From an uncultured Pedobacter sp. (lineage in GTDB: Bacteria; Bacteroidota; Bacteroidia; Sphingobacteriales; Sphingobacteriaceae), in assembly GCA_946478755.1 (NCBI GenBank), contig CAMLDJ010000098.1, positions 1 to 17,436 on the forward strand: 17,436 nucleotides of DNA, in the 5' to 3' direction. Shown in pieces: positions 189 to 5,138 of the stretch. Position numbers and translations under genes: made by a program. Each line of letters starts with the position of its first letter. The stretch's first letter is position 1. Below the pieces are notes generated by a model. The model saw nothing but the letters and a program-made list of their open reading frames with translations. It was not told where the DNA came from and searched no databases.

Positions 189-342
189 GTACCGATCAGC
201 AGGAATACTTTGAACATTTAAATCGCTTTTTATTGCTTATAGAGCCTATAATTGAGGATTTAGAGAGGAAAGGTTTCATATAAAATGGAAATAAAAATCA
301 TTCAGATTTTCATGAAGGAGACCTTGACCAGATTATAATAGA
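189..342 (+). repeat. Direct repeat R1, copy 1 (partner 2607-2760)
   Basis: Aligned by eye without gaps to 2607-2760 at a constant offset of 2418 bases, about 90% identical. It begins at the bases GTACC, contains the tail of a protein-coding frame (194-283) and continues about 60 bases beyond its stop codon. The left flanks of the two copies are unrelated. Confidence 0.9.
191..283 (+). pseudogene. Gene remnant: C-terminal 29 residues of an unidentified protein, copy 1
   Basis: The frame reads DQQEYFEHLNRFLLLIEPII and on to EDLERKGFI before TAA at 281-283. A stop at 179-181 closes the same frame upstream, so only the tail of a gene is left. I do not recognise the family; the amphipathic, helical look would suit the last helix of a small regulator. 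The copy at 2612-2701 encodes the identical peptide although four codons differ (Leu, Ile, Arg, Gly), all by silent third-base changes. That shows both tails came from genes under selection for protein sequence. Confidence 0.6.
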
Positions 343-409
343 CAAATTGTTTGGCTGTTTCAAAACCAATACCTTTATTGGCACCGGTCACTAATGCTAT
401 CTTTGTCAT
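302..409 (-). pseudogene. Truncated short-chain dehydrogenase/reductase (SDR), N-terminal fragment
   Basis: From ATG at 409 the minus strand reads MTKIALVTGANKGIGFETAK, the beta1 strand and glycine-rich TGxxxGIG NAD(P)-binding loop that opens classical SDR proteins. After about 22 residues the frame runs into the DNA shared with repeat R1 and stops after 35 codons. Intact SDRs are about 230-260 residues and also need the NNAG and YxxxK motifs, which are absent. This is therefore a broken gene whose 3' part was lost at the R1 junction. The relic of an AraC-type regulator lies just upstream on the same strand. Confidence 0.75.
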
Positions 410-529
410 GTATGTAAATTATTTAATTACAGTACAAAGGTAGACTCAAATGTATAACCGGGGTAGCGCAAATAAAACCAATCCTTACTAAAATCAAACT
501 TTCTCGTCTCTATATATTTGAAAGAGCAA

Positions 530-580
530 TTATTCCTTCTGTAGTTTTCTGTAATCTGTAGGATAACCAATTGCATGCTT
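530..580 (-). pseudogene. Relic of an AraC-family regulator (extreme C-terminus)
   Basis: One minus-strand frame reads KHAIGYPTDYRKLQKE before a TAA at 530-532. This matches the KHTNVSPTDYRKLHNE end of the intact AraC-type gene at 1434-2345, and the two share the DNA word ACAGATTACAGAAAA. Further upstream the frame is broken by two TAA codons, so the rest has decayed. It looks like the end of a second AraC-type gene that once preceded the SDR gene at 409. A longer open frame across 427-633 in another frame resembles nothing I know and is probably not a gene. Confidence 0.6.
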
Positions 581-637
581 TTATTGTTATTGATAATACA
601 ATCTTCTCCACTTAAGGACAACATGTTCTCCAATAGT

Positions 638-1426
638 TTAGCTATATTTTTTTAAAAATTTAAGACGCTTACTTACCCGTTTGAGCCATTCCCTGGCCAT
701 TAGTTCGTGACCTGGAACGGTCGGATGGATTCCATCCCAAATCCAATACGAATCAGGTGCCTTTTTCGCTGCCTTTTGGAAAACCATTTGAAAGTCGACA
801 ACCACCGCATCAAATTCGACTGCAAGCTTCCGTACCCTCAATGCGAGATTAGTAACAGTGAGCTGATAAGCCTCCCATTTTGCCTTTACCTTTCCCACTG
901 GCGCTATAAATGGTAGGCAAAGTACAATCAGAGTTTTTGGATTCTGTTTACGAACTTGTTCCAATAGATCACGATAAGTATTTTCAAATGCATCAATATC
1001 TTTGGGGTTTATAGAAGACCTATCCATAAGCTTAGCGGCGTCATTAATGCCAACCAGAATGCTCAGTACGCTGGGACGAAGATCAAGACAATCAGCTTGC
1101 CAACGTTCTTGCAATTGGCTGACCCGGTTACCGCTGATTCCCCTATTGTAAAATAGCAAGTCTGTCGCCGGAAAATCCGCACCCCAACGGCTGGCGATAC
1201 AGAATGCATATCCATGCCCCATTATATGATTGGGATCTGTGTTCCTGCCACGATTTCCATCGGTAATTGAGTCTCCTTGAAATAGAACCGTCAAGCCCTT
1301 TACTGGCTCAGATACTGAGAGCGTAGCAGCTACGCTCGCTTCCAAACTTTCATTCGGCAAACAAGCGGTAGCACCTGCCATAGCAGCGGATAAAAGAAAT
1401 GAACGTCTAGATAAAATTTGTTTCAT
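638..1426 (-). CDS. SGNH/GDSL-family esterase with twin-arginine-type leader
   Basis: A secreted hydrolase of the SGNH superfamily, 262 residues. The four conserved blocks are visible: GDSITDG with nucleophile Ser53, the glycine of RGISGN (Gly96), GIND with Asn128, and DGIHP with Asp231 and His234. Such enzymes remove acyl or acetyl groups from lipids or glycans; the substrate cannot be read from sequence. The start at 1426 is chosen because MKQILSRRSFLLSAAMAGA then forms a Tat-type leader (SRRSFL). The longer open frame to 1519 only adds residues that overlap the upstream gene. The ATG lies 7 bp after the stop of the AraC-type gene, so the two are probably co-transcribed and the regulator may control the enzyme. 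Family is certain, specificity unknown. Confidence 0.9.
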   Translation of the reverse strand: MKQILSRRSFLLSAAMAGATACLPNESLEASVAATLSVSEPVKGLTVLFQGDSITDGNRGRNTDPNHIMGHGYAFCIASRWGADFPATDLLFYNRGISGNRVSQLQERWQADCLDLRPSVLSILVGINDAAKLMDRSSINPKDIDAFENTYRDLLEQVRKQNPKTLIVLCLPFIAPVGKVKAKWEAYQLTVTNLALRVRKLAVEFDAVVVDFQMVFQKAAKKAPDSYWIWDGIHPTVPGHELMAREWLKRVSKRLKFLKKYS

Positions 1427-1433
1427 TTGAAAA

Positions 1434-2345
1434 CTATTCGTTGTGCAATTTTCTGTAATCTGTTGGAGAAACATTGGTATGTTTCTTAAAAAAGGAATTG
1501 AAATGGGGTGGTTCCTCAAAGCCTAATGCAAAGCAGATCTCTGCAATTTGCCAATTGGTTAGTTTTAATAAAATTTTGGCTTCTTGTATAAGTCTTGCTG
1601 CAATGATCTCTCCTATAGTTCTCCCTTTAGCTGACTCTACCTGGCGGTTTAAATAATTGGGATGAAGCGAGAGCTTATCTGCGAAATCTTTTGGAGTTTT
1701 AAATTTGACTGTATCCTGAGGCGTTTCTATGGGAAATTGCGATTCTAATAATCTGATAAAAGAACAGGCGATAATTTCAGTCGTATTATTTGTTTTAACG
1801 AATGAGCTAACCGGAGCAAGTTTTTGTGCATTAAAGATGAGTTCGAGTAAATAGGTGCGTTGCAGATTAGCTGCAAATGCACTATTGGCTCGTGTTTCAT
1901 CAAATGCTTTATAGTAGATAGCAATAAAATCTTTTGTTTGCTCAGCTGTGAGCGAATAGATATTCTGCGTGTCTGGTTTATAGATCGGGAATTCAAGTAA
2001 ACGATAACCACTATTTGCTTTAGTGATAAACTCCTCCTTAAACATGCAGCTGATGCCGGCGTACCCTATACCAGTTGCATGTATCCCAAAAGGAATTTTG
2101 GTAGTGGTAAAAAGTAGCGAGTTGCCCGAAATATCAATACTTCTATCTTCAAATTCAAGTCGGTACGCTCCTTGTAATAGGGTGGCCGTGTAAAAAGTCC
2201 TACGATTATATTCAAATGAAAAATATGGGTGTTTGGCTGTGCTTAGATCCAATATTTGAAAAATGTCTGGACCATTTTGAATGTTGTCTGATGCCGCAGA
2301 GGATTTTTCGGTGGCAATAGAAGGTGTATCATCAGATATTTTCAT
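1434..2345 (-). CDS. AraC-family transcriptional regulator
   Basis: A 303-residue protein. Roughly the first 180 residues resemble the cupin-like effector-binding half of AraC proteins (HPYFSFEYNRRTF, FGIHATGIGYAGI). The last 100 hold the two helix-turn-helix units: FADKLSLHPNYLNRQVESAKG, then WQIAEICFALGFEEPPHFNS and the hallmark end FFKKHTNVSPTDYRKL. It is a cytoplasmic DNA-binding activator or repressor; the ligand is unknown. It is first in a two-gene unit with the SGNH esterase 7 bp downstream, its most likely target. The upstream DNA holds no convincing TAnnTTTG promoter box. A relic of a second AraC-type end is present at 530-580. The start at 2345 is the only reasonable ATG. Confidence 0.92.
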   Translation of the reverse strand: MKISDDTPSIATEKSSAASDNIQNGPDIFQILDLSTAKHPYFSFEYNRRTFYTATLLQGAYRLEFEDRSIDISGNSLLFTTTKIPFGIHATGIGYAGISCMFKEEFITKANSGYRLLEFPIYKPDTQNIYSLTAEQTKDFIAIYYKAFDETRANSAFAANLQRTYLLELIFNAQKLAPVSSFVKTNNTTEIIACSFIRLLESQFPIETPQDTVKFKTPKDFADKLSLHPNYLNRQVESAKGRTIGEIIAARLIQEAKILLKLTNWQIAEICFALGFEEPPHFNSFFKKHTNVSPTDYRKLHNE

Positions 2346-2472
2346 ATACTAAGGTAGGTAAAAATTGATAGAATATAGACAGAAATTAAGGCTAAAGAAG
2401 ATGCAAAGTTTATCGACCCGATGCCCAAATTATTGCCGAAACTTTAAAATTGAATTCAAAACTGCAAAAAAG
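2346..2472. other. Intergenic DNA upstream of the AraC-type gene
   Basis: With the repeats that follow, this belongs to the 490-bp gene-free stretch 2346-2835. I see no gene, RNA or clear promoter here. A plus-strand frame ends in KFIDPMPKLLPKL at about 2444, preceded by a stop about 22 codons earlier. It could be a decayed gene tail but matches nothing I recognise. Confidence 0.4.
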
Positions 2473-2611
2473 TGTTCAAAGATAATCTCCTCTTCCCCGC
2501 TTACCAGACTGAACCATTAGCAGGAATACTTTGAACAAGGCTGAGATACTATGGAGCATCGATTTGACACAAAAAAACCGGACTTTGAGTTGTTCAAAGC
2601 CCGGCGGTACC
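2473..2611 (+). repeat. Direct repeat R2, copy 1 (duplicate of the tRNA-Leu 3' flank)
   Basis: Corresponds to 4134-4271 beside tRNA-Leu. From 2519 to 2599 all 81 bases are identical to 4179-4259; then one T-to-C difference (2600) and eleven more identical bases. The left third is more diverged, with one single-base indel. The copy includes the tRNA terminator and the last bases of the tRNA's 3' end (GGTACC on either strand), but not the tRNA body. At GTACC (2607-2611) it passes directly into repeat R1. Confidence 0.93.
2571..2604 (-). terminator. Intrinsic terminator, duplicate of the tRNA-Leu terminator
   Basis: On the minus strand an 11-bp stem (2594-2604 with 2578-2588, loop of five) is followed by seven T residues. 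The one base that differs from the tRNA copy (2600) turns an A-U pair into a G-U pair, so the RNA stem survives. In its present place it would end minus-strand transcripts from the TPR-like gene at 2836-3294. Confidence 0.75.
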
Positions 2612-2760
2612 GATCAGCAGGAATACTTTGAACATTTAAATCGCTTTTTGTTGCTTATTGAGCCTATAATTGAGGATTTAGAGAGAAAAGGATTCATATA
2701 AAAAGAGCATAATAATTTTTCAGATTTTCATCAGGGACACCTTGACCAAATTACAATAGA
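2607..2760 (+). repeat. Direct repeat R1, copy 2 (partner 189-342)
   Basis: Aligns without gaps to 189-342, about 90% identical by eye. It overlaps repeat R2 by the five bases GTACC, so this spot is a hybrid: left side like the tRNA-Leu flank, right side like the 189-342 region. Between 2761 and 2835 I see no gene. Confidence 0.9.
2612..2701 (+). pseudogene. Gene remnant: C-terminal 29 residues of an unidentified protein, copy 2
   Basis: Encodes exactly the same peptide as 194-283, ending EDLERKGFI and TAA at 2699-2701. All four nucleotide differences across the frame are silent third-base changes. The coding sequence upstream has been replaced by the tRNA terminator copy, so the gene has no start. 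The family is unknown. The pattern implies that two diverged but functional homologues once existed, each now cut at the same codon. Confidence 0.6.
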
Positions 2761-2835
2761 ACAAAAAAGTTGGCAAGTGTGAAAAATTGTAGTTTTCTTT
2801 TTTTAAAAGTATAATGATGGGGCTTATCCTAAAAT

Positions 2836-3294
2836 TTAACTCATGCCTCTCTTGATTCCGCCCATATCAAGATTCTTCACTCTTTCAAGCCCATTGGTGA
2901 TGCCTCCTTTAATCATATTACCATAACCATCATCAAGCAGAAATTTTGTGAACGAAAGTGCTAATTGGTAGTGCTCTTTTGCGCTATTGAAATCTTTCAA
3001 GTCCTCGTATCCTTTAGCAATATTTAAATAAAGAGATGGATAAGCTCCTTTTACACTGTCATCATTTATTTTTAACGCAAAATCTAAAGCTATTTTATCC
3101 CATTTCAATTTGTCATCCAAGCTCTTTTGGTGTCGAGCCAGATAATGAGCTGATGTAAATTTTTCTAGATCATTTGTAGCTTCTTTCCAAGCTTGTAAAA
3201 ATAGTACAAGAGCTTCCTCCTTTTTTCCTTCTCCTTCAAAATTCATTCCTTCAGCACAGAGTTTGACTACATTATTGTTAGGGTCATATTGCAT
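2836..3294 (-). CDS. TPR-like protein of unknown function
   Basis: A 152-residue soluble protein, almost wholly helical by composition, with tetratricopeptide-like helix pairs: EGEGKKEEALVLFLQAWKEA (about 20-39), a middle pair around HYLARHQKSLDDKLKWDKIA, and SLYLNIAKGYEDLKDFNSA with EHYQLALSFT (about 87-116). No signal peptide or membrane segment is seen. Homologues of this size occur in Bacteroidota and Firmicutes and have, I believe, sometimes been labelled rRNA methyltransferase; nothing here resembles a methyltransferase (no SAM-binding motif). It lies 65 bp downstream of a Crp/Fnr-type regulator, with a promoter box and a FNR-like palindrome in the gap, so regulation by that protein is likely. 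A terminator follows at 2571-2604. Role probably protein-protein interaction; function unknown. Confidence 0.8.
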   Translation of the reverse strand: MQYDPNNNVVKLCAEGMNFEGEGKKEEALVLFLQAWKEATNDLEKFTSAHYLARHQKSLDDKLKWDKIALDFALKINDDSVKGAYPSLYLNIAKGYEDLKDFNSAKEHYQLALSFTKFLLDDGYGNMIKGGITNGLERVKNLDMGGIKRGMS

Positions 3295-3311
3295 ATCATT
3301 TATTTAAGTAT

Positions 3312-3319
3312 CAAAGATA
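3312..3319 (-). promoter_or_regulatory. Bacteroidota -7 promoter box (TATCTTTG) for the TPR-like gene
   Basis: A perfect match to TAnnTTTG on the minus strand, 17 bp before the ATG at 3294. No TTTG is found at the usual -33 distance. That region is instead occupied by the palindrome at 3342-3355, as expected of an activator-dependent promoter. Confidence 0.55.
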
Positions 3320-3341
3320 AAGCTCTGATATAGCTTAAGCA

Positions 3342-3355
3342 TTGACCTAAGTCAA
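3342..3355. promoter_or_regulatory. FNR/Crp-type operator TTGACCTAAGTCAA
   Basis: A palindrome TTGAC-N4-GTCAA, of the same form as the FNR consensus TTGAT-N4-ATCAA. Its centre (3348.5) is about 43 bases upstream of the transcription start expected from the -7 box at 3312-3319, close to the classical class II activator position near -41.5. It lies between the Crp/Fnr-type gene and the TPR-like gene. The regulator's recognition helix carries E-T-L-S-R, matching the E..SR contacts by which FNR reads TTGA half-sites. Confidence 0.6.
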
Positions 3356-3359
3356 AATA

Positions 3360-3926
3360 TCATTTTGATTTAAGTCGGCTTAATGTTTCCTCTCTAATGT
3401 CGAGATAGGAAGCCAAAATCTTATTTGAAAGTCTTCTAATATAAATTGGTTTTTCATCTAATATTTTGTCATATCGTTGCTTCGCTGAAAGAGTAACCAA
3501 GGTTTCCATTTTCTTATTTTGGCAGATGTATGCCATTTCTAAAAATTTTGTGTAAAATCCCTCCCATTCAGGAATGTCATTAACTAATTGATAAAAATCC
3601 TTATAACTAATTGAGTGTAGTTCTAAATCCTCAAGAGCATCTACAAATTCAAAAGATGGTTGCTGAGAAATGAAACTTGATATTGATGTGATAATGGAAT
3701 CATCAAAGGCAATATATCTGGTTTTTTCTTTTCCTTGTTGAGTCAAGTAATATGTTCTCATGCAACCTGTATTTACAAAATATAGTTCTTTACAAATTTC
3801 TCCTTCTGAAAGTAAAAGGGTATTGCGTTTTACTTTTTTATATTTAAAACACTTATATATTTGTTCAAGTTGGAGCTCATTGATACTGGTATTGATCCTA
3901 AGATAATATTTTAGTTTTTGTATCAT
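3360..3926 (-). CDS. Crp/Fnr-family transcriptional regulator
   Basis: A 188-residue protein of the short Crp/Fnr type common in Bacteroidota. Residues about 20-110 form the cyclic-nucleotide-binding-like jelly roll (KVKRNTLLLSEGEICKELYF, VNTGCMRTYYLTQQGKEKTR). A dimer helix follows, and the C-terminus is a short helix-turn-helix, LSNKILASYLDIREETLSRL. The residues that bind cAMP in E. coli CRP are not evident, and the four-cysteine cluster of FNR is absent, so its signal is unknown. The ETLSR recognition helix predicts TTGA-type half-sites, and such a palindrome sits right after its stop codon in front of the TPR-like gene. The two probably form a regulator-target pair. The start at 3926 fits the family's usual beginning. 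Confidence 0.9.
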   Translation of the reverse strand: MIQKLKYYLRINTSINELQLEQIYKCFKYKKVKRNTLLLSEGEICKELYFVNTGCMRTYYLTQQGKEKTRYIAFDDSIITSISSFISQQPSFEFVDALEDLELHSISYKDFYQLVNDIPEWEGFYTKFLEMAYICQNKKMETLVTLSAKQRYDKILDEKPIYIRRLSNKILASYLDIREETLSRLKSK

Positions 3927-4133
3927 TTTTATATTATTTATTTAATGTCGGAAATTAAAAATTTGGTCATTATGTAGTAATATAACTTATAATTTTTAAA
4001 AGAATCGAAGTTTGATCAATAGGATGGATAAACCAATGTCCATGATCCTACCTCATCAAAAATATAAACCCGATATCTCTTTGATTCCCAAAAAATACAT
4101 TGAAGGCATCAGCTTAGTTTATAGAACAGTTTT
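3927..4133. other. Gene-free AT-rich stretch upstream of the Crp/Fnr-type gene
   Basis: Together with repeat R2 copy 2 this makes a 341-bp stretch without a protein gene. It should contain the promoter of the Crp/Fnr-type gene, but I see no convincing box. A plus-strand frame of 40 codons (ATG 4024 to TAA 4146) runs into the repeat; it resembles no known protein and is probably chance or a relic. Confidence 0.4.
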
Positions 4134-4271
4134 TGTTCAAAGCTAATCTCCTCTTCCCTCCTTACCAGACTAACCATGAGCAGGAATACTTTGAACAAGG
4201 CTGAGATACTATGGAGCATCGATTTGACACAAAAAAACCGGACTTTGAGTTGTTCAAAGTCCGGCGGTACC
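4134..4271 (+). repeat. Direct repeat R2, copy 2 (tRNA-Leu 3' flank)
   Basis: The presumed source copy of the repeat also found at 2473-2611. It contains the word TGTTCAAAG (4134-4142), its inverse CTTTGAACA (4189-4197), the word again inside the terminator (4251-4259), and ends in GGTACC at the 3' end of the tRNA gene. Its 81-base core is identical in the two copies, which suggests a recent duplication or gene conversion. Confidence 0.93.
4231..4264 (-). terminator. Intrinsic terminator of tRNA-Leu
   Basis: On the minus strand a perfect 11-bp stem (4254-4264 with 4238-4248, loop of five) is followed by seven T residues. It begins three bases after the tRNA's last base and ends the metallo-hydrolase/tRNA transcript. 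Confidence 0.88.
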
Positions 4272-4351
4272 CGAGAGCAGATTCGAACTGCCACGCCGTT
4301 GCCAGCACCAGCCCCTCAAGCTGGCGCGTCTACCAATTTCGCCACCCGGGT
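4268..4351 (-). tRNA. tRNA-Leu (anticodon GAG)
   Basis: A class II tRNA of 84 nt with a long variable arm. Acceptor ACCCGGG pairs with CTCGGGT (one G-U). The anticodon stem CCAGC/GCTGG encloses the loop TTGAGGG, giving anticodon GAG (plus-strand 4315-4317), which reads CUC and CUU. The T-arm carries TTCGAAT. The discriminator base is A and the CCA end is not encoded (ACCG follows). It lies 22 bp after the stop codon of the metallo-hydrolase gene on the same strand, so it may be cut from a shared transcript. Its 3' end is the junction with repeat R2 and the edge of the accessory region. Confidence 0.95.
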
Positions 4352-4373: not shown

Positions 4374-5138
4374 TTATTCAGATAATATCGTCAAACCATC
4401 GTAAGCTAATTTGATATTAGCAGGCAAATCTTTTTCCACAATTGCATGAAGTCCTAAATTATGGCTGATATGCGTGAAATAGGTTGCCTCTGCCCCAATC
4501 TTTTCTGCAAATTCAATTGCCTCATCTAAAGTGAAATGCGAAATATGTTGTTCTCTTTGCAAAGCATTTACTACAAGAATACGCGTTCCTTTTACTTTTG
4601 CCAAAGTTTCGTCCGAAATCGTCTTCGCATCTGTGATATAACTAAAATCACCGATCCTGAAGCCCAATATTGGCAATTTATAGTGCATGATGTTAAGCGG
4701 GATAATTTCAGTCGCGCCAATATAGAAGGGCTGATCCGTGATGGTATGTAAATCTATTTGCGGTAATCCCGGATATCGTACTTCAGAAAAGATATATGAA
4801 AATTCTCTTTTTAAGGCGTGCTCCACCCGCTCGGTTGCATAGATATCTATATTCTTTTTGAGCAGGTAATTAAAGGGACGGATGTCATCGAGACCTGCCA
4901 CATGGTCTTTGTGCTCATGGGTAAATAGAATGGCATCCAGGTCTTTGACACCAGCACGCAACATCTGATACCTGAAATCAGGGCCACTGTCTATCACAAT
5001 GGTCTTATCGGCCGTTTCTATCAATACAGAAACCCGCAGGCGCTTATCTCGATGGTCTGCAGACTGGCAAACTACACACTTGCATGTAATAACAGGGATA
5101 CCCTGAGAGGTGCCGGTACCTAAAAATGTAATCTTCAA
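4374..5138 (-). CDS. PhnP-like metallo-beta-lactamase-fold hydrolase, TTG start
   Basis: A 254-residue cytoplasmic metal-dependent hydrolase. The N-terminal MKITFLGTGTSQGIPVI and the CxCxxC cluster (Cys19, Cys21, Cys24) are typical of the PhnP branch. The metal ligands THEHKDHVAG (His74, His76, Asp78, His79) and later TDAK and FTHISHNLGLH complete the site. PhnP itself is a cyclic phosphodiesterase acting on ribose 1,2-cyclic phosphate, but no phn genes are nearby, so the substrate here is open; a nucleotide or cyclic phosphate is the best guess. The start codon is TTG (5136-5138): it falls exactly where the family begins, and no in-frame ATG is available. A promoter lies 26-54 bp upstream. 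tRNA-Leu follows on the same strand. Confidence 0.9.
   Translation of the reverse strand: MKITFLGTGTSQGIPVITCKCVVCQSADHRDKRLRVSVLIETADKTIVIDSGPDFRYQMLRAGVKDLDAILFTHEHKDHVAGLDDIRPFNYLLKKNIDIYATERVEHALKREFSYIFSEVRYPGLPQIDLHTITDQPFYIGATEIIPLNIMHYKLPILGFRIGDFSYITDAKTISDETLAKVKGTRILVVNALQREQHISHFTLDEAIEFAEKIGAEATYFTHISHNLGLHAIVEKDLPANIKLAYDGLTILSE

What the first reader, a model, noticed from the sequence alone, without database searches (positions are those of the whole stretch)
189..4351. Stacked mosaic of gene cassettes next to tRNA-Leu, bounded by duplicated tRNA-flank DNA
Three junctions share sequence in a chained way. Site A (189) has right arm R1. Site B (about 2607-2611) has left arm R2 and right arm R1. 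Site C (4271) has left arm R2 and then the tRNA. B is a hybrid of A and C, crossing over within the five bases GTACC, and C meets the tRNA exactly at its 3' end (GGTACC). Each interval between junctions carries a regulator plus one target-like gene (AraC with SGNH esterase; Crp/Fnr with TPR protein), along with relics. This is the layout expected if small modules were added one after another at a tRNA 3' end, or if flank-mediated recombination duplicated the site. Unlike classical islands, the duplicated DNA is the terminator side of the tRNA, not its 3' half, and no integrase is seen here.
Basis: partly seen in the sequence, partly recalled or inferred. Interest (0 to 1): 0.75.

Follow-up and report, generated by a model that had tools for sequence, protein, structure and literature searches.

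The report
Stacked mobile cassettes beside tRNA-Leu
Two small gene cassettes sit one behind the other at the end of a leucine tRNA gene in a Pedobacter-like bacterium; their shared ends look like the two sides of a DNA-integrating enzyme's gene, which is cut in two when such an element inserts.

Summary
R1 (189-346, 2607-2763) and R2 (2473-2611, 4134-4271) are real repeats; the layout is [R1-cargo-R2][R1-cargo-R2]-tRNA-Leu, joined at GTACC. In relatives R1 and R2 bound modules stacked between tRNA-Leu(GAG) and a conserved YCF48-like gene: 2.9-180 kb apart in the 23 of 35 genomes with both on one contig, nearly empty in one MAG. One recombinase-free module is shared by two species at 92.7% identity; their neighbouring genes are 67-74%. 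R1 is not tRNA flank: it is the last 29 codons of a large serine recombinase (LSR) gene whose attachment site lies inside its own reading frame. Integration cuts these codons off and the LSR frame then runs into the antisense strand of the tRNA. Of 53 intact LSR genes in the 35 genomes, 32 overlap a tRNA 3' end this way; in a phylum sample 12 of 30 loci. The window's modules have no LSR. Precedents exist (CIME accretion, rumA ICEs, phage Mx8, archaeal split integrases, a few tRNA-targeting serine integrases), so this is a new variant of a known kind. Movement in trans and direction control by the tail swap are inferred, not shown.

The parts
189..346 (+). R1 copy A: outer end of module 1; core GTACC 189-193, then 29 codons plus stop (194-283) = detached end of a serine recombinase gene
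344..409 (-). start of a short-chain dehydrogenase-like gene (MTKIALVTGANKGIGFETAKQF, named by eye) cut off at R1
638..1519 (-). GDSL/SGNH esterase, cargo of module 1 (an in-frame ATG lies inside the listed TTG-start ORF)
   Evidence: PF13472, 1.8e-24
1434..2345 (-). AraC-family regulator, cargo of module 1
   Evidence: PF12833, 4.8e-19
2473..2611 (.). R2 copy B: tRNA-proximal end of module 1, with terminator-like hairpin 2578-2604 read on the minus strand; ends in the core GGTACC 2606-2611
2607..2763 (+). R1 copy B: outer end of module 2; 29 codons plus stop at 2612-2701. R2 + GTACC + R1 together (2473-2763) have the layout expected of the circular form's attP
2836..3294 (-). TPR-like protein, cargo of module 2
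   Evidence: below Pfam cut-offs
3360..3926 (-). Crp-type cNMP-binding regulator, cargo of module 2
   Evidence: PF00027, 3.1e-11
4134..4271 (.). R2 copy C: tRNA-proximal end of module 2, with terminator-like hairpin 4238-4264 directly after the tRNA
4266..4351 (-). tRNA-Leu(GAG), the integration target
4374..5138 (-). metallo-hydrolase, conserved neighbour upstream of the tRNA, used as the anchor for relatives

Best explanation
189-4271 is a tandem array of two integrated modules of a family of integrative elements that use a large serine recombinase (LSR) aimed at the 3' end of tRNA-Leu(GAG). In the parent form the LSR gene is the tRNA-proximal end and its attachment site lies inside the gene, 29 codons before the stop. 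Crossover within GGTACC at the tRNA end cuts the gene: the main part stays beside the tRNA and its frame runs on into the antisense tRNA strand, while the last 29 codons are carried to the far end and become R1. R2 is the tRNA-proximal end of a lineage of modules that no longer encode the LSR but bring a terminator for the tRNA. New insertions land at the tRNA and push older modules outward, so module 2 (TPR/Crp) would be the younger one, and the junction between the modules looks like the circular form's attP. Shown: the repeats, module borders in relatives, tRNA-linked LSR genes, LSR end joined in frame to R1, coding evolution of R1, sharing of one recombinase-free module as a unit. Inferred: that an LSR acted on these modules in trans, the order of insertion, any effect of the tail swap.
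For: R1/R2 lie beyond the same tRNA with other genes between them in 15 of 80 loci; the B junction matches 23 of 35 genomes. Distance tRNA-Leu(GAG) to the YCF48-like gene is 2.9-180 kb in 23 of 35 genomes and under 1 kb in L028. A recombinase-free module is 92.7% identical over 3,894 columns between two genomes whose neighbouring genes are 67-74%. R1: in 25 independent pairs substitutions by codon position are 82:42:148; changed codons synonymous/nonsynonymous 121/105 in its frame against 33/183 and 17/194 in the others. Intact LSR genes of 532-540 aa read into antisense tRNA-Leu(CAA), -Arg(TCT) and -Leu(GAG). LSR end joined to the R1 peptide in 8 of 20 loci looked at, 5 of them cleanly in frame. 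PF07508+PF00239 gene, relaxase and coupling protein at tRNA-Leu(GAG) in L029.
Against: No intact LSR ending in the R1 tail was found: 0 of 20 database proteins, and frames with R1 are 20-78 aa. No circular form was seen. R2 aligns to LSR ends only 0.9-3.2 sd above shuffles, never above the best of 300. PF07508 lies in only 1 of the 23 tRNA-Leu intervals, so the enzyme is rarely at hand there. 10 of 66 distinct R1 segments carry in-frame stops. Relatives of the window's cargo lie elsewhere.
Confidence: 0.72

Rival explanations
1. Each window module arrived as a complete element with LSR and mobilisation genes and decayed in place, keeping its ends and a few cargo genes (CIME formation); the modules never moved without their own enzyme.
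For: A complete element exists at this tRNA in L029, and decayed LSR ends lie against tRNA-Leu(GAG) in G004, G014, G019 and G020. Module 1 holds a cut dehydrogenase start beside R1. Decay to att-only elements is described in PMC5704250 (passages).
Against: The R2 type seen here recurs without an LSR and with different cargo in several species, which points to a lineage that spread in the LSR-less state; one recombinase-free module is shared between two species at 92.7%.
Confidence: 0.3
2. Modules are exchanged by ordinary homologous recombination between the conserved ends R1 and R2 (for example after DNA uptake), without any site-specific enzyme in the recent past.
For: The ends are about 140-160 nt long and alike enough to recombine; short hybrids joined at the shared 19-mer occur (L101 near 16189, L026 near 10965).
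Against: It does not explain why borders fall at the tRNA 3' end, why R1 evolves as the end of a recombinase gene, or how the first copies arose; the same LSR layout occurs at other tRNAs.
Confidence: 0.15
3. A classical tyrosine integrase put the modules at the tRNA.
For: tRNA 3' ends are usual targets of tyrosine integrases. In L122 one R1-like end lies 5.4 kb from a tRNA-Lys that has a tyrosine integrase gene beside it, though its core there reads GGTAG.
Against: No PF00589 match in 10 of 10 tRNA-Leu intervals tested (G001, G007, G008, G017, G018, G019, G020, G025, G034, G035). Only the last few tRNA bases are shared, not a 3' fragment. The gene end fused to R1 is a serine recombinase's.
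Confidence: 0.04
4. A simple old duplication of tRNA-flank DNA, without mobility.
For: The R2 copies are 96% and the R1 copies 88% identical.
Against: Other cargo between the same ends in relatives, the nearly empty site, and unit sharing between species.
Confidence: 0.02

Closest known systems
CIMEs / tandem accretion of ICEs and IMEs (review PMC5704250; passages read)
   Same: Elements that lost integration and transfer genes but keep both att ends, stacked at one target, with new ones landing at the target end.
   Different: Here the enzyme family is a serine recombinase aimed at tRNA genes, the far att end is coding DNA of that enzyme, and up to about 180 kb is stacked.
Streptococcal ICEs in rumA (PMC4701971; passages read)
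   Same: att site inside the serine integrase gene; integration changes the integrase's C-terminus.
   Different: Target is a protein gene, reciprocal exchange of 3' ends with rumA; here the target is a tRNA gene and the new tail is read from antisense tRNA.
Phage Mx8 IntP and archaeal SSV-type 'suicidal' integrases (PMC4383910, PMC4701971, PMC8371274; passages read)
   Same: Integrase gene spans attP, is cut on integration at a tRNA gene in the archaeal case; int(N)/int(C)-like remnants mark the element ends.
   Different: Those are tyrosine recombinases. In SSV types the catalytic part is cut off; here only a short C-terminal tail is.
Serine integrases known to use tRNA genes: Mycobacterium AICEs (tRNA-Leu) and phiRSM1 (tRNA-Ser) (PMC3218068; passages read)
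   Same: Serine recombinase with a tRNA target.
   Different: That paper calls it rare and Islander (PMC4383910) calls it not known; here it is frequent in one genus and covers 11 anticodon kinds in the set.
Tycheposons of Prochlorococcus (search listing only; details recalled)
   Same: Cargo modules beside tRNA genes, some without their own enzyme.
   Different: Tyrosine recombinase and tRNA carried by the element (recalled).
Integron gene cassettes (recalled)
   Same: Array of small cargo units with common joints.
   Different: No tyrosine recombinase near, units of kilobases with a regulator, target is a tRNA gene.

Membership tests
CIME in tandem accretion | both att ends kept | tested here: met
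   R1 and R2 with GTACC at both ends of both modules
CIME in tandem accretion | integration and transfer genes lost | tested here: met
   no recombinase or relaxase among the window ORFs scanned
CIME in tandem accretion | derived from an ICE or IME with the same target | tested here: inconclusive
   an IME-like element lies at the same tRNA in L029, but its R2-type end differs from the window's
CIME in tandem accretion | mobilised in cis or trans by a related element | not testable with these tools
   only indirect: unit sharing between species
Element with integrase gene spanning attP | integrase end joined in frame to the far-end codons at an attP-like junction | tested here: met
   8 of 20 loci, 5 clean, 2 with stops, 1 partly out of frame; always in decayed genes
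Element with integrase gene spanning attP | intact integrase gene with the tail in a circular form | tested here: inconclusive
   none found; circles would rarely be in assemblies
Classical tRNA island (tyrosine integrase) | tyrosine integrase on the element | tested here: not met
   0 of 10 intervals with PF00589
Classical tRNA island (tyrosine integrase) | displaced tRNA 3' fragment at the far end | tested here: not met
   only GTACC shared in the window; tRNA search finds one tRNA
Integron cassette array | IntI-type tyrosine recombinase and attC sites | tested here: not met
   no PF00589 in 10 of 10 intervals of relatives; attC folding not tested
Tycheposon | tyrosine recombinase and tRNA carried by the element (recalled) | tested here: not met
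   no PF00589 in 10 of 10 intervals; no tRNA inside the window's modules

The most novel reading that the evidence does not exclude
Bacteroidota hold a large, little-recognised class of tRNA-targeting serine recombinases whose C-terminal tail is switched by integration: a dedicated conserved tail in the circle (29 residues in the group studied), an antisense-tRNA tail in the chromosome. The switch is a built-in direction control needing no separate factor. The same system feeds a pool of enzyme-free cassettes that carry only the split ends, bring a fresh terminator for the tRNA, and spread between species in trans.
Probability: 0.4. Interest if true: 0.8.

Novelty: new variant of a known kind. 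Interest (0 to 1): 0.62.

Why it matters
It explains how gene islands of up to about 180 kb without a visible tyrosine integrase grow at one tRNA gene, and gives an exact tag (R1, R2, GTACC) for reading cassette gain and loss in Pedobacter. It points to a natural series of serine integrases aimed at many different tRNA genes. And it makes a long-standing question, how serine integrases control direction, testable in a simple two-plasmid assay: the same protein with its circular-form tail and with its integrated-form tail.

Tried and rejected
Own genome: not held. R1 as the end of some host gene: the first whole-genome search found only short frames; the tRNA-Leu(CAA) loci then showed the recombinase. 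A second conserved peptide after R1 was not taken further. Arm-type sites of a tyrosine integrase (suggested by the shared 19-mer): dropped because PF00589 is absent from the intervals tested; what the 19-mer does stays open. GIY-YIG homing as the driver: such a gene lies between tRNA-Leu and a partial tRNA copy in a few genomes but is not in the window and not tied to R1. Whole-length alignment of R2 with LSR ends: weak. Carriers: the 28-base core+R1 pattern has no exact match in viral contigs, no LSR relative there (close relatives only), and only matches under 60% identity in plasmids. Cargo of module 1 has relatives in 9 of 145 genomes and of module 2 in 15 of 145; in the 12 loci fetched (6 from each) no R1, R2, R1 peptide or tRNA-Leu was found within about 1.5 kb. 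First plasmid search: tRNA hits and hits to the TPR gene only.

Literature: 10 of 10 searches used. 'Pedobacter + serine recombinase + tRNA' gave 0 papers; the library lacks most subscription papers. Ten papers were seen as found passages only, none in full; tycheposon papers as a listing only. One paper on precise mapping of integrative elements was not held.
Full report
WHAT THE WINDOW SHOWS. The repeats are as described. From left to right: R1 (189-346), esterase and AraC genes, R2 (2473-2611), R1 (2607-2763), TPR and Crp genes, R2 (4134-4271), tRNA-Leu(GAG) on the minus strand. All joints are at GTACC and the last is the tRNA's own 3' end. So there are two modules, each with R1 at the left and R2 at the right, and the hybrid B is where one module meets the next. 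Cargo by Pfam: GDSL esterase, AraC, weak TPR, cNMP-binding.

RELATIVES. The metallo-hydrolase beside the tRNA brought in 80 loci (the best 80 of 587 confirmed), the closest from Pedobacter. R1 or R2 was found beyond the tRNA in 15 of the 80 (R1 in 9, R2 in 12; some R2 matches are short), with other genes in between; the window's own cargo was not found there. I then searched 35 whole genomes, reached through 35 of the 39 closest loci (L009, L016, L024 and L028 left out): the B junction matched 23 of 35. Sites form rows, for example at 95.5, 107.2, 110.1 and 118.5 kb on one contig of G001 beyond the tRNA. Cargo differs between modules: AraC, TetR and HxlR-like regulators, dehydrogenases, a Dps/response-regulator/kinase set (named by eye, not scanned). 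Over the genus, a 51-residue junction peptide matched 76 of 145 genomes at E <= 0.001; some of these match only its recombinase half.

EMPTY AND FILLED SITES. In one Sphingobacteriaceae MAG (L028) a DUF2147-like and a YCF48-like gene (named by eye) start 365 and 841 bases after the tRNA. The YCF48-like gene has one match in each of 35 of 35 genomes. In 23 of 35 it lies on the same contig as tRNA-Leu(GAG), at 2.9, 6.2, 8.0, 9.1, 12.0, 20.2, 21.9, 24.4, 24.7, 26.7, 29.8, 31.4, 44.3, 55.9, 58.0, 62.4, 68.3, 68.8, 78.4, 84.8, 93.6, 119 and 180 kb (my subtraction; the 62.4 kb case, G013, has a stop in that gene). In the other 12 the two are on different contigs. One downstream sequence type (TAACCAGATTC...GGGTTGCTC and close variants) follows the tRNA's GGTAC in L004, L015, L022 and L029 but follows R1's GGTAC in L002 and L018, as expected if modules were inserted between.

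A MODULE IS SHARED AS A UNIT. G017:C9:145882-149760 (P. ginsenosidimutans) matches G007:C7:122048-125921 (P. panaciterrae) at 92.7% over 3,894 columns. At the R1 end the match stops at the core in both genomes. At the R2 end it stops in the terminator stem, 7 bases from the core in G017 and about 35 bases from the nearest GTAC in G007, whose R2 has extra bases there. In G017 it holds two dehydrogenases, an AraC and a TetR (by eye) and no recombinase. Neighbouring chromosomal genes of the two genomes are 67.3-74.4% identical in the five aligned pieces. A second pair, G001 and G017, shares 3,777 columns at 92.1% against 65.3-79.6% in eight neighbouring pieces, and in different array positions.

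WHAT R1 IS. R1 encodes a 29-residue peptide that starts right after the core and ends in a stop. At E <= 0.1 it was found 49 times in 21 of 35 genomes, in open frames of 20-78 residues. It lies beyond tRNA-Leu(GAG), tRNA-Leu(CAA) and tRNA-Arg(TCT) and, less clearly, near tRNA-Lys. It evolves as protein: of 66 distinct segments, 10 with stops were dropped; in 25 independent pairs of the rest the substitutions by codon position are 82:42:148, and changed codons are synonymous/nonsynonymous 121/105 in its frame, 33/183 and 17/194 in the two others. Beside tRNA-Leu(CAA) in L128 and L129 the other end of such elements is the 3' end of a large serine recombinase. Intact LSR genes of 532-540 residues were then found against tRNA-Leu(CAA), tRNA-Arg(TCT) and tRNA-Leu(GAG), their frame running through the core into the antisense tRNA strand. 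At array junctions the LSR end is joined to the R1 peptide in 8 of 20 loci looked at: L171, L172, L178, L184 and L185 cleanly, L173 and L174 with stop codons, L186 partly out of frame. One LSR type ending ...SPVCT has an antisense-tRNA-like tail in a database protein (P0017) and an R1-type tail at the junctions in L178 and L185. This is the strongest evidence that R1 is the cut-off end of the LSR gene. Against it: a search with an LSR+tail chimera returned 20 LSR proteins among 143 candidates and none carries the R1 tail; most end in peptides like those read from antisense tRNA, a few are short or end otherwise. No intact LSR with the tail was found anywhere.

WHAT R2 IS. R2 is the tRNA-proximal module end. 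It brings a hairpin followed by T's in the tRNA's direction; one stem position holds G-C, C-G or T-A in different copies (read by eye), which suggests selection for pairing. The first 16 bases of the copy at 2473 (TGTTCAAAGATAATCT) occur in the LSR gene of L143 at the codons VFKDNL; copy C differs there by one base. Over its whole length R2 aligns with six LSR ends at 0.9-3.2 sd above shuffles and never above the best of 300 (12 comparisons). That R2 is a decayed LSR end is therefore a fair guess, not a result.

THE PARENT. L029 (P. jeongneungensis) has, from the tRNA-Leu(GAG) outward, an intact LSR (PF00239, PF07508), an SLFN_AlbA_2 protein, a MobC_2-like protein just below the cut-off, a relaxase (PF03432) and a coupling protein (PF14293, PF02534): the make-up of an integrative and mobilizable element. 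Its own far end was not identified; the nearest R1-like sites found in that genome are about 128 kb away. PF07508 lies in 1 of the 23 single-contig intervals. PF00589 was sought in 17 of the genomes; it lies in 0 of the 10 intervals that can be judged there.

HOW COMMON. Of the 66 PF07508 matches I fetched the 53 with open frames of 466 aa or more (the 13 shorter or broken ones left out). In 32 of 53 the longest frame overlaps the antisense strand of a tRNA 3' end, with the cut-off -120..200 bases; 3 more (L222, L230, L236) fall just outside it, and 18 have no such tRNA. Eleven anticodon kinds are among the 32. In 118 Bacteroidota genomes drawn evenly, 24 had PF07508; of the 30 loci returned, 12 show the same layout with the wider cut-off -200..200, one of them (L254) already in the first set. 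No shuffled control was run. Only the Leu/Arg group was tied to R1 here; the far ends of the other groups were not studied.

COMPARISON WITH THE LITERATURE (found passages only). [quoted passage not shown] An earlier paper calls serine integration into tRNA genes rare and names Mycobacterium AICEs and phiRSM1 (PMC3218068). Streptococcal rumA ICEs have att inside the serine integrase gene and change its C-terminus (PMC4701971). Archaeal suicidal integrases are split into int(N) and int(C) (PMC8371274). CIME accretion is described in PMC5704250. Each ingredient is thus known. The combination (tRNA target, serine enzyme, split tail, enzyme-free cassettes) was not met in the ten searches made.

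LIMITS. No circle, activity or expression was seen. The window's own genome is not held. The direction-control idea, movement in trans and the order of insertion are inferences. The tool gave no completeness values for these genomes.

CHANGES MADE ON CHECKING. Intervals are 23 of 35, not 22 (G013 had been missed). The R2-side border of the shared module is given exactly. The junction fusions are split into clean, broken and out of frame. Ten papers, not nine, were seen.

Noticed in passing
window 528-580 and 1432-1484: 77% identical pair: the left copy looks like a leftover of a second AraC gene's end, inside module 1.
   Followed up: no
window 2951-3284: The TPR gene is 69-72% identical to stretches annotated as rifampin ADP-ribosyltransferase on Nostoc and Fischerella plasmids; the window's ORF is only 152 aa and matches TPR models only.
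   Followed up: partly
L017, L019, L020, L035, just after tRNA-Leu(GAG): A small ORF (MASVYILFSKKLNRFYTGS..., GIY-YIG-like by eye, read in L105 and L108, which hold the loci of L019 and L020) lies between tRNA-Leu and a second, partial tRNA-Leu copy.
   Followed up: partly
window 198, 2519, 2616, 4179: The same 19-mer in R1 and R2; hybrids joined at it occur in relatives (L101 near 16189, L026 near 10965). Binding site or recombination hot spot is unknown.
   Followed up: partly
L122 6950-12430: tRNA-Lys with a tyrosine integrase gene beside it and an R1-like end (core GGTAG) 5.4 kb away, so the R1 end may also be carried by other elements.
   Followed up: partly
L192-L243: Serine recombinase genes end on antisense tRNA-Met, -His, -Arg, -Asn, -Ser and other tRNAs; their far ends and circular-form tails were not studied.
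   Followed up: partly
L280 (G085:C1:4800092-4801140): A 71% identical TPR+Crp pair like the window's module 2 cargo, with a tRNA-Lys about 1.2 kb away and no R1 or R2.
   Followed up: partly
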